18,950 nt of DNA from the NCBI GenBank assembly GCA_021158055.1, contig JAGGVJ010000043.1:1-18950 (forward strand). The letters run 5' to 3'. Position numbers and translations under genes: made by a program. Shown piece after piece: positions 576 to 3,297 of this stretch (positions within the stretch are counted from its first letter, which is position 1; each line of letters opens with the position of its first letter). Origin of the DNA: Candidatus Iainarchaeum sp. (lineage in GTDB: Archaea > Iainarchaeota > Iainarchaeia > JAGGVJ01). The notes under the pieces are model-generated. The model saw nothing but the letters and a program-made list of their open reading frames with translations. It was not told the origin of the DNA and ran no database searches.

Positions 576-664
576 ACTTTATTTTCATCGGTTTGTTCTT
601 GTTTTTTTGATTTTCTTTCATTTGTTAATTTTTTTAAATTTGTTAATATTTTAACTTAATTTTG

Positions 665-766
665 ATTATTTTGCTCACCACAATTTTACCTTGAATCAAA
701 GGCAAAAAATGAGAGATATCACTATACTTACATAACATTAAAAAAGAAACTCATATTTAAACACTA
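665..766. repeat. Uninterrupted copy (copy A) of the sequence split by the TnpB element
   Basis: 665-730 matches 1556-1621 at 64 of 66 positions (mismatches at 677 and 727). 732-766 continues with about 29 of 35 matches to 2893-2927, beginning with an exact 19-nt block (ATAACATTAAAAAAGAAAC). Copy A therefore looks like the empty version of the locus into which the tnpB element at 1622-2892 is inserted. Both copies lie upstream of a minus-strand gene (the secreted protein and hicB), so the repeat may carry regulatory DNA. On the minus strand copy A contains TTTAAATA near 754-761, a possible TATA box, while copy B is changed there. Confidence 0.85.
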
Positions 767-1167
767 TCCTAAAATATGCCTTGCAGAACTCCAGTTGGAT
801 TGCCGGACTGCTTGTTAAAGTTGTTGTTTTGTCTGTCCATCCCATGTTAAGGGCCGATGCTAAGCGGCAATTTGTTTTGCCGGATGCCTTGTTTGAAAAA
901 AATAAGCGGATAAAAAAAGACGCCGGAATCATGGAAAAGATTACCATGGGGAATAGTGGATCCTGAAGGAGACTTGAGACATATATCTTTATGTCGGATA
1001 TGATTTTAGGGATTTCAGGATAAAGAAATTCCTGCGCTGAATTTCCCATTATCCGCCTGCATACCTTATATGAATCCGCATGACTGCAATACCCCACCCG
1101 GCTTTGAATTTATGCTTCAATTCTTGCTTTTGAAATTGCATTTGATGCAAGAAACTGATGAGGCCTT
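767..1167. other. Stretch without a supportable gene
   Basis: A 119-codon minus-strand frame (738-1097) and a 61-codon plus-strand frame (781-966) overlap here. Neither has a ribosome binding site or a recognisable motif, and the minus frame uses part of repeat copy A as its C-terminus. It could be the remnant of a decayed gene. A small palindrome, TTGCAT-TTG-ATGCAA at 1136-1150, lies just downstream of the truncated hicA. Confidence 0.4.
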
Positions 1168-1284
1168 TTATTTTATCAAACCCGCGAACTTATCCCTGCT
1201 TCCTTGTTGTCTCTTCAATTCAAAACCCAGTTTTTTCAGCACCTTTGCAATTTCTCTTGCGGTCATTAAAGGCAATTTTGCCAT
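1168..1284 (-). pseudogene. hicA: Truncated HicA toxin (N-terminal half only)
   Basis: The ATG at 1284 follows the hicB stop codon by 2 nt. The 38-residue product, MAKLPLMTAREIAKVLKKLG then FELKRQQGSRDKFAGLIK, matches the start of the HicA mRNA interferase family (KLP, then a helix, then LKKLGFE, R-Q-x-GS). In HicA the GS is followed by the catalytic histidine and then by strands ending in a PVH/G-x-L region, for a total of about 60-85 residues. Here GS is followed by Arg and the frame stops 11 codons later, so the catalytic His and the C-terminal half are absent. No trace of the missing half was seen further along the minus strand. The product should be inactive as an RNase. Small genes of this kind are easily missed because the frame is short. 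Confidence 0.7.
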
Positions 1285-1286
1285 TA

Positions 1287-1502
1287 TCAAACCTCTACTT
1301 CTAACTGTTGCACAGCTAAGAATTTAGTTTTAGTCTCTTTGGTGCCTTTAACTTGCAGATATAATGATATTGCCTCTTTAGTCCTCTTAAGCAACTCATC
1401 ATATGTTTTAGCTTGTGTGTGGCAACCCGGAAGTTCAACTACTCCTGATATCAGGTAACCATCTTCCCCTTCTTCTATAATTACATTATATTTTTCTGTC
1501 AT
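1287..1502 (-). CDS. hicB: HicB-family antitoxin
   Basis: The 71-residue protein has the HicB partial RNase H-like fold signature: a first strand YNVIIEEGEDGYLISGVVELPGC, then HTQAKTYDELLKRTKEAISLYL. HicB normally binds and masks the HicA toxin and often represses its own operon. No C-terminal DNA-binding domain is visible, as in the short HicB class. GTGAT (1508-1512) stands 5 nt before the ATG and is a plausible ribosome binding site. The gene precedes hicA, which is truncated here, so this antitoxin no longer has an intact partner in cis. It may act in trans on another HicA, or be decaying. Confidence 0.85.
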   Translation of the reverse strand: MTEKYNVIIEEGEDGYLISGVVELPGCHTQAKTYDELLKRTKEAISLYLQVKGTKETKTKFLAVQQLEVEV

Positions 1503-1507
1503 TTTGC

Positions 1508-1546
1508 ATCACTAAATGTGTAAAAATACGTCGGTATTCATATAAT
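1508..1546 (-). promoter_or_regulatory. Promoter of hicB-hicA
   Basis: ATTATATGA on the minus strand (1538-1546) is a likely TATA box about 40 nt before the hicB ATG, giving a leader of roughly 14 nt that carries GTGAT. The repeat copy B begins about 10 bp upstream, and the TnpB element is inserted about 75 bp upstream of the box, so the core promoter itself is intact. Confidence 0.45.
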
Positions 1547-1555
1547 TTGGTTTTT

Positions 1556-1621
1556 ATTATTTTGCTCGCCACAATTTTACCTTGAATCAAAGGCAAAAAA
1601 TGAGAGATATCACTATAGTTA
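1556..1621. repeat. Left half of repeat copy B, flanking the TnpB element
   Basis: 64 of 66 positions are identical to 665-730. It abuts the 3' (right) end of the tnpB element. In a TnpB system the bases just outside this end become the guide of the omega RNA, so the guide would begin TAACTATAGTGATATC (minus strand, from 1621). Confidence 0.85.
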
Positions 1622-1770
1622 TGTCAATTACTCCACCTTGTCGGGTGGGGCTTGTAACTAACTATATTGTTGTTACTTTTGGTTGATTGACGAACAACCT
1701 GCTGATCTCAGATATACCAAGATTAGCGATGTTTCGCGAAGCATTTAGATCAGCATGTAATTGAAAACCG
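1622..1770 (-). ncRNA. Putative omega RNA (reRNA) of TnpB
   Basis: In characterised IS200/IS605 TnpB systems the guide RNA overlaps the 3' end of tnpB, includes the right-end hairpin and takes its guide from the flanking DNA. The equivalent region here is the end of tnpB plus the 7-bp hairpin at 1631-1650 (minus strand CCCCACC-CGACAA-GGTGGAG). The upstream boundary is a guess; only the position and hairpin are visible. The presumed guide continues into 1621 and below. Confidence 0.35.
1631..1650. repeat. Right-end hairpin of the TnpB element
   Basis: CTCCACC and GGTGGGG form a 7-bp stem (one G-T pair) around the loop TTGTCG, 11 bp from the tnpB stop codon and about 9 bp from the element end. 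The position is typical of a TnpA-recognition hairpin. Confidence 0.7.
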
Positions 1771-2729
1771 CAACCACAACTATACCAACTGCCTTCTCTG
1801 TTTGTTTTTTTTATTGTGTTGCAATTGCTGCATTTTTGGCTTGTGTATCTTGGGTTTACTTTTACAATCTGTTTGCCTAATGCTTCTGCTTTGTAACTTA
1901 AAAACAATTCAAATTGATTGTAAGACCAATTGCCTAACATTCTGTTGAATCGCTTTCCATTACTTTTCTTTGTCATCCTGCTTAATCTTTCAAATGCAAA
2001 CACTTTAAAATCACTTTCTGCAATTGCTTTGCTTAACCTGTGATTTACATCAGTCACAAACCGTGTTTCTTTACCGCTGATTAATTTAAGTCTTTTTATA
2101 GCGGGTTTAGTGCCTTTGGACTGCAATACTCTTTTCAGGTATTGGTATTTGCCTTTGACTCTTTTCAAATCCTTTGAATTGAAAAACTGATTGTTTGAGC
2201 AGACCAAAATGTTGTTTATCCCCCTGTCTATTCCCAAAACATCTTTTGCTGTTGCCTGTTGAATTATCGGCTTTTCTTTTTCAACAACCACATTCAAAAA
2301 CAAATTATTGTTCCTGTAAATCAACATTCCTGCTTTTGGCTTCCAGTCAATGTATCTGTTCAGCTGTTTGTTTGTGCCAAAATTAAGTTTTATCCTGCCC
2401 CTGATTGTTGATATTGAAATGAATTTGTGTTCAAATGAAACCCTCAAACATCGCTTGTCATATCTCAAAGCAGACATTTGTTTTACTTTGATTTTTCTGC
2501 CTAACTTGTCTTTTTTTAATGCTTCTATTGCAACATCCCTTGATGTCTGAATCAAAGCAGATGGGAACTCAGGGTAAAGTTTTCTGATTTTTTTATAAGT
2601 TAAGTCATGCAATTCGTTTTTGTTATCTGTCTGGATGTTGAATCCAAAATCACAAATCAACTGCCTTATTTTTGAAGCGGCCTGCAAAGTGTTTTCCAAT
2701 CCCTTGCTTTTACTTAACCTTATTTGCAC
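1662..2729 (-). CDS. tnpB: TnpB RNA-guided endonuclease, start region altered by a duplication
   Basis: From the GTG at 2729 the product is 355 residues. The three RuvC-type catalytic acids are intact: Asp168 in GIDRG, Glu247 in AFERL and Asp327 in HADLNASRN. A zinc finger (Cys300, Cys303, Cys318, Cys320) sits between the last two, as in the OrfB_Zn_ribbon family. TnpB cuts DNA guided by an RNA made from the element's end and flank. The original start was most likely the ATG at 2773, giving MQRTVQIRLSKSK, but a 32-bp tandem duplication (2704-2767) shifts the frame so that this ATG now leads to a TAA at 2720-2722 after 17 codons. Initiation at GTG 2729 would lose only four residues, but it has no obvious ribosome binding site. 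The gene may therefore be poorly expressed or a very recent pseudogene. Confidence 0.85.
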   Translation of the reverse strand: MQIRLSKSKGLENTLQAASKIRQLICDFGFNIQTDNKNELHDLTYKKIRKLYPEFPSALIQTSRDVAIEALKKDKLGRKIKVKQMSALRYDKRCLRVSFEHKFISISTIRGRIKLNFGTNKQLNRYIDWKPKAGMLIYRNNNLFLNVVVEKEKPIIQQATAKDVLGIDRGINNILVCSNNQFFNSKDLKRVKGKYQYLKRVLQSKGTKPAIKRLKLISGKETRFVTDVNHRLSKAIAESDFKVFAFERLSRMTKKSNGKRFNRMLGNWSYNQFELFLSYKAEALGKQIVKVNPRYTSQKCSNCNTIKKTNREGSWYSCGCGFQLHADLNASRNIANLGISEISRLFVNQPKVTTI

Positions 2730-2767
2730 AGTTCTTTGCTTTTACTTAACCTTATTTGCACAGTTCT
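2704..2767. repeat. 32-bp perfect tandem duplication at the tnpB start
   Basis: 2704-2735 and 2736-2767 are identical (each begins TTGCTTTTACTTAACC). Because 32 is not a multiple of 3, the insertion breaks the reading frame between the ATG at 2773 and the body of tnpB. Removing one copy would restore a 359-codon gene. Confidence 0.95.
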
Positions 2768-2850
2768 TTGCATTTTATATCTATGGGTGGCAAACTATTT
2801 ATCTATTCATGTCTATTGTGCCATACAATACATTCAAGGTTTTATGCCCT

Positions 2851-2892
2851 CCCTTGCGGAAAGGGTCTTACGGAAAGGGTCTTACGGTAAGG
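2851..2892. repeat. Left end of the TnpB element: hairpin and 14-bp tandem repeat
   Basis: CCCTT-GCGGA-AAGGG (2851-2865) can form a 5-bp hairpin. The 14-bp unit CGGAAAGGGTCTTA occurs at 2857-2870 and 2871-2884. CTTAC-G-GTAAG at 2881-2891 is a palindrome at the very tip. These features match the subterminal hairpins expected at an IS200/IS605 left end. Confidence 0.6.
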
Positions 2893-2927
2893 ATAACATT
2901 AAAAAAGAAACCCAGAGTTAAACAATA
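2893..2927. repeat. Right half of repeat copy B, beyond the TnpB left end
   Basis: Matches 732-766, with the first 19 nt identical and about 29 of 35 overall. Together with 1556-1621 it reconstitutes the sequence that is continuous at 665-766. Confidence 0.8.
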
Positions 2928-3297
2928 CTGTGAATACCACCGATTAAAATCGTTGGATTCCCGGCTTGCAAAGGCACGGAATTTTTGCACTCCCGTGTCA
3001 AAGGTTTACCCACCGTGTCAAAGGTTTACCCACAGAACCAATTCAAAATTCTATATTACATTACACTTCTATATCATATTCATATTACACTATTCTGCAC
3101 TATTTCCACTTTCAATTTAAGATTTGAGACAGCTGATTTTACCCCATTAACCAATCCAATCAGCTGATTTTAATAACAGTTAAAATCTTATTATTTTAGA
3201 ATACACTCATTATGAAATTAATCCGAAAATCTAAAAAATATATTAAAAACACATAAAAAAGCTATTAAAAATACATCAATCGCGGTCTTGAAAAACC
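2928..3297. other. Intergenic stretch with short duplications
   Basis: No gene is supported in these 370 bp. A perfect 20-bp tandem duplication occupies 2993-3012 and 3013-3032 (CCGTGTCAAAGGTTTACCCA). A 12-bp direct repeat, CAGCTGATTTTA, occurs at 3130-3141 and 3161-3172. The DNA then becomes very AT-rich; TATTAAAAATA near 3263-3273 could be the TATA box for the gene at 3298. Confidence 0.6.

What the first reader, a model, noticed from the sequence alone, without database searches (positions are those of the whole stretch)
665..2927. An intact paralogous target defines the exact ends of a tnpB-only element and matches its predicted guide
Copy A (665-766) is continuous, whereas copy B is split at 1621/2893 by the tnpB element. 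This fixes the boundaries and shows no target duplication. The predicted omega RNA guide (minus strand from 1621, TAACTATAGTGATATCTC) matches the same place in copy A except at guide position 4, next to the conserved flank AATGTTAT. The genome thus keeps, 0.9 kb from the element, a near-perfect target for its own TnpB. The single change may protect it, or the site may be a homing destination.
Basis: partly seen in the sequence, partly recalled or inferred. Interest (0 to 1): 0.75.

Follow-up and report, generated by a model that had tools for sequence, protein, structure and literature searches.

The report
Decaying TnpB element beside duplicated insertion site
A small archaeal jumping gene of a well-known kind (an IS200/IS605-type tnpB element) sits in one of two copies of a ~115-base repeat, so the second copy shows what the site looked like before insertion; the resemblance between its RNA guide and that second copy is what simple duplication predicts, and the element looks partly broken.

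Summary
A ~115-bp repeat occurs twice in this archaeal genome, both copies in this window. Copy A (652-766) is continuous; copy B is split cleanly, without target duplication, by a 1,270-bp tnpB element (1623-2892, minus strand). Nine relatives and sibling elements in the same genome place the right end at TAATTGAC (1623), not 1621/1622. The guide is therefore ATAACTATAGTGATATCTC (from 1622), next to TAM-like TTAT. Copy A carries TTAT plus this target with two mismatches (guide positions 1 and 5), not one at position 4. Those two fit the general A/B divergence (11/115; Fisher p=0.65), so there is no sign of selected protection. Best reading: a decaying, now probably immobile IS200/IS605 (IS1341-like) TnpB element that landed in one copy of a local duplication. 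Copy A is a natural empty-site reference, not demonstrably a homing destination. New member of a known kind.

The parts
652..766 (.). Repeat copy A, continuous (empty site)
   Evidence: the repeat finder; alignment to the joined flanks of B
732..735 (-). TTAT (TAM-like motif) in copy A
   Evidence: sequence; same motif precedes sibling left ends
712..731 (-). Near target of the predicted guide in copy A; mismatches at guide positions 1 and 5
1543..1622 (.). Repeat copy B, guide-side half
2893..2927 (.). Repeat copy B, TAM-side half (TTAT at 2893-2896 on the minus strand)
1623..2892 (-). tnpB element, 1,270 bp, inserted 3' of TTAT without target duplication
   Evidence: boundaries from the empty-site comparison, relatives and siblings
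1662..2729 (-). tnpB open frame from GTG, 355 aa; putative RuvC and zinc-finger residues conserved
2704..2771 (-). Perfect 32-bp tandem duplication across the tnpB start; the native ATG (2773) frame stops after 17 codons
2857..2884 (-). Perfect 14-bp tandem duplication inside the left end
1623..1701 (-). Predicted 3' part of the omega RNA: stem-loop with GTCAAT (1686-1691) pairing the terminal ATTGAC (1623-1628), and hairpin 1631-1650
   Evidence: covariation over 10 sequences
1603..1622 (-). Predicted guide segment, ATAACTATAGTGATATCTCT
   Evidence: follows the conserved right end
1287..1502 (-). HicB-like antitoxin gene just downstream of the element on the same strand (neighbour, not part of the element)
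   Evidence: Pfam PF15919, E 4e-6

Best explanation
An IS200/IS605-group tnpB-only (IS1341-like) element inserted by the usual single-strand 'peel and paste' route 3' of a TTAT in one copy of a pre-existing ~115-bp local duplication. Shown: the empty paralogue, the exact ends, the absence of target duplication, the conserved right-end RNA structure, the conserved TnpB active-site residues, the two mismatches at copy A, the start-codon frameshift and the lack of a detectable Y1 transposase. Inferred: the right end is transcribed as an omega RNA whose guide reads into copy B, so an active TnpB would have cut the empty site left after excision and helped retain the element; copy A resembles the guide only because it is a paralogue of the insertion site, drifting at the general rate; and the element is now decaying and probably immobile, with TnpB made, if at all, from the internal GTG, possibly by re-initiation because the upstream frame's stop lies a few bases past that GTG.
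For: Clean empty-site alignment; only two copies in the genome; right end shared by nine relatives and by siblings in the same genome behind the same TTAT; right-end structure 94.7% paired with 9 pairs changed on both sides, above all 500 shuffles on the covariation score; OrfB_IS605 and Cas12f1-like_TNB domains; D168, E247, D327 and C300/C303/C318/C320 invariant in the six aligned homologues; frameshift; no Y1_Tnp match in own genome while 6 of 14 control genomes ring; guide mismatches not enriched.
Against: No RNA or cleavage data. The TAM is inferred from flanks, not measured. The genome is a 45-contig, 95%-complete assembly, so a TnpA gene could be missing and the tandem duplications could be assembly errors. 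With only two copies and no outgroup, the order (duplication, then insertion) rests on parsimony. Fisher's test on 11 differences has little power.
Confidence: 0.85

Rival explanations
1. Copy A is a live near target: TnpB cuts it or is held off by the two mismatches, and it acts as a homing destination or is under selection to keep the mismatches.
For: TTAT is intact and guide positions 2-4 and 6-19 match. An archaeal TnpB cut a target with a single mismatch at position 5 next to its cognate TAM as well as the full match (PMC11043419).
Against: Mismatches are not denser in the guide than elsewhere. TAM-proximal double mismatches abolished ISDra2 TnpB cleavage (PMC10097598). The tnpB start is frameshifted, and copy A has not been converted.
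Confidence: 0.07
2. Copy A is an excision scar: the duplication happened after insertion, both copies once carried the element, and A lost it precisely.
For: IS200/IS605 excision and insertion leave no target duplication (PMC8612924), so an excised site and a never-occupied site look alike.
Against: It needs an extra loss and a TnpA that is not detected. No element sequence remains at copy A.
Confidence: 0.07

Closest known systems
IS200/IS605 tnpB-only elements (IS1341 group) and ISDra2 TnpB (PMC8612924)
   Same: TnpB with RuvC and zinc-finger motifs, insertion 3' of a short T-rich motif without target duplication, right end overlapping a predicted guide RNA
   Different: Motif is TTAT rather than TTGAT; the tnpB start is frameshifted; no TnpA detected in the genome; a paralogous empty site lies 0.9 kb away
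ISDra2 omega RNA pseudoknot (PMC10097598)
   Same: The last scaffold bases before the guide pair with an upstream segment
   Different: Here six bases (GTCAAY with RTTGAC) pair, with the partner in a small stem-loop about 60 nt upstream
Palindrome-associated transposable elements of Haloquadratum (PMC3119063)
   Same: Transposase-free copies with fused IS605-type ends, as in this genome's miniatures
   Different: The miniatures here are only 38-41 bp, mostly with one large hairpin; whether they move is not shown

Membership tests
IS200/IS605-group tnpB element | TnpB protein with OrfB_IS605 and Zn-ribbon domains | tested here: met
   PF01385 E 3e-11 and PF07282 E 1e-21
IS200/IS605-group tnpB element | RuvC catalytic residues and zinc-finger cysteines | tested here: met
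   D168, E247, D327, C300, C303, C318, C320 invariant in the aligned homologues; catalytic role assigned from knowledge of TnpB
IS200/IS605-group tnpB element | Insertion 3' of a short motif, no target duplication | tested here: met
   Empty-site comparison; TTAT also before sibling left ends
IS200/IS605-group tnpB element | Near-terminal palindromes at both ends | tested here: met
   Right-end hairpin 1631-1650; left-end CCCTTTCCGCAAGGG read from sequence
IS200/IS605-group tnpB element | Y1 HUH TnpA available in trans (tnpB-only members carry none themselves) | tested here: inconclusive
   No PF01797 match in own genome, but the assembly is 95% complete; presence now is not required for membership
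TnpB-omega RNA nuclease | Right-end RNA with pseudoknot, ending at the element boundary | tested here: met
   Covarying structure in 10 sequences; structure only, no RNA data
TnpB-omega RNA nuclease | RNA-guided cleavage next to the TAM | not testable with these tools
   Needs biochemistry
Intact tnpB gene | Open frame from the native start | tested here: not met
   ATG 2773 frame stops after 17 codons; 355-aa frame reopens at GTG 2729

The most novel reading that the evidence does not exclude
The duplicated empty site is a functional partner of the element: an imperfect chromosomal target that TnpB binds or cuts inefficiently, promoting gene conversion between the copies or tuning TnpB activity.
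Probability: 0.05. Interest if true: 0.6.

Novelty: new member of a known kind. Interest (0 to 1): 0.3.

Why it matters
A built-in empty site gives exact ends, TAM and guide register for an archaeal TnpB element without needing a second strain, and offers a natural two-mismatch target for testing TnpB specificity. It also corrects a tempting claim: guide resemblance to a nearby paralogue is expected from duplication alone. Separately, the same genome shows TnpB, IscB and 41-bp transposase-free elements sharing one set of ends.

Tried and rejected
A dispersed repeat family: rejected, only two copies in the genome, and only short weak matches in 86 other genomes of the class. A known RNA family in the repeat or right end: no Rfam match. 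The repeat core in viral contigs: none. Close tnpB relatives in plasmids or phages: none at the limits used. Selection on the mismatches: no support. A left-end pattern in viral contigs gave 24 matches that I did not follow. One alignment call failed on a wrong frame and one script on a coding slip; both were redone. The right end of relative L029 could not be read and was left out of the RNA alignment.

Full report
Observation. The window holds two copies of a ~115-bp repeat, 652-766 and 1543-1622 plus 2893-2927. A search of the 1.15-Mb genome finds strong matches only at these places, and 86 other genomes of the class give only short weak matches. When B's flanks are joined at 1622|2893 and aligned to A, the match runs through the junction without an indel; the score is 97 against at most 20 in 200 shuffles. 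The local alignment also continues at lower similarity towards 602 and 811 in A, so the original duplication may have been somewhat longer.

Ends and guide register. Nine relatives of the TnpB with a readable right end (L030-L033, L048-L052) all finish in TAATTGAC or TAGTTGAC followed by unconserved sequence. In the same genome an IscB-type element and three 41-bp miniatures end in TAATTGAC and begin behind TTTTAT. The window element thus ends at 1623, and the predicted guide is ATAACTATAGTGATATCTC from 1622. In copy A the sequence after TTAT is GTAAGTATAGTGATATCTC: mismatches at guide positions 1 and 5. A genome scan with 17 nt of guide and up to 3 mismatches returns the element's own flank, copy A (2 mismatches) and three 3-mismatch sites, one of them on the opposite strand at the element's own right junction.

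Right-end RNA. On an alignment of ten right ends, a structure with an upstream stem-loop, a GTCAAY/RTTGAC pseudoknot and a terminal hairpin pairs in 94.7% of cells; 9 pairs change on both sides, and the covariation score 0.449 exceeds all 500 shuffles (mean 0.144) and all slid versions. Five of the six pseudoknot pairs never vary and say nothing by themselves; the sixth is U-A in six, C-G in three and U-G in one. I chose the structure by eye on these sequences, so the percentage paired is favoured; the covariation is the stronger part. Shuffles ignore relatedness of the sequences. ISDra2 omega RNA has a comparable pseudoknot just before the guide (PMC10097598).

TnpB. The 355-aa frame has OrfB_IS605 and Cas12f1-like_TNB domains, and the residues corresponding to the RuvC acids (D168, E247, D327) and the zinc-finger cysteines are invariant in the aligned homologues (their catalytic assignment is from general knowledge of TnpB). 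The native start is taken as ATG 2773 (MQRTVQIRL; compare MIRTIQLRL and MFRTIKLKL in L031 and L033), but a perfect 32-bp tandem duplication puts that frame out after 17 codons. The long frame reopens at GTG 2729, a few bases before the upstream frame's stop, so re-initiation is possible (inference). The copies being identical, the duplication is recent or an assembly error. No Y1 transposase was detected in the genome (95% complete), though the same search rings in 6 of 14 control genomes.

Does copy A matter to the element? Eleven of 115 compared positions differ between A and B; two fall in the first 16 guide positions (Fisher p=0.65). The test was run for three guide lengths (12, 16, 20 nt): p was 0.32, 0.65 and 1.0. 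This gives no support for a selected protective change, though power is low. Published work bears both ways: an archaeal TnpB cut a target with a single position-5 mismatch next to its cognate TAM (PMC11043419), while TAM-proximal double mismatches abolished ISDra2 TnpB cleavage (PMC10097598). In the homing model TnpB cuts the empty donor site so that repair restores the element (PMC8612924); here A remains empty.

Siblings in the genome. Two sets of ends recur: TTAT...TAATTGAC (the window element, an IscB-type element at C15:11714-13179, a left-end fragment at C14:40381, and 41-bp miniatures at C45:28566, C25:4209 and C40:1222) and TTAA...TAGTTCAC (a tnpB element on C28, a deletion derivative at C33:33691-34136, and miniatures at C14:14297, C45:22589, C22:10811 and C31:1409). 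The IscB assignment rests on RRXRR and HNH domains. Two miniatures (C25, C40) are 40/41 identical with unrelated flanks. This fits movement of the miniature itself, but the same core deletion in two copies of one parent is not excluded. Terminal-only IS605 derivatives formed by repeat-mediated core deletion are described in Haloquadratum (PMC3119063). A pattern built from this genome's miniatures found none in 86 other genomes of the class, which says little because ends diverge between species.

How the work went. After the window and own-genome checks I searched the class and the public genome and viral collections for relatives, used them to fix the right end, then built an RNA model whose weak own-genome matches turned up the miniatures.

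Verdict. Real, correctly spotted, and slightly mis-registered. It is an ordinary IS200/IS605 tnpB element, apparently decaying, beside a paralogous empty site that is useful for defining ends and for a specificity test but not shown to be a homing destination.

Noticed in passing
G000:C45:28566-28606, C25:4209-4249, C40:1222-1262, C14:14297-14337, C45:22589-22629, C22:10811-10851, C31:1409-1446: Transposase-free miniatures of 38-41 bp made of fused IS605-type left and right ends behind TTAT or TTAA; the C25 and C40 copies are 40/41 identical with unrelated flanks.
   Followed up: partly
G000:C15:11714-13179 (L145): IscB-type element (RRXRR and HNH domains) with the same TTAT left flank and TAATTGAC right end as the window's tnpB element.
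   Followed up: partly
window 1168-1284, minus strand: Short HicA-like frame of 38 codons after hicB, read by eye from the sequence; it looks truncated. The family was not tested.
   Followed up: no
window 2993-3032 and 3232-3275: Further short tandem duplications (20 bp perfect, 22 bp 86%) near the element, suggesting frequent slippage or assembly effects here.
   Followed up: no
L029, 1300-1500 minus strand: A related TnpB (42% identity) whose 3' flank lacks the usual right-end motif in the stretch read.
   Followed up: no
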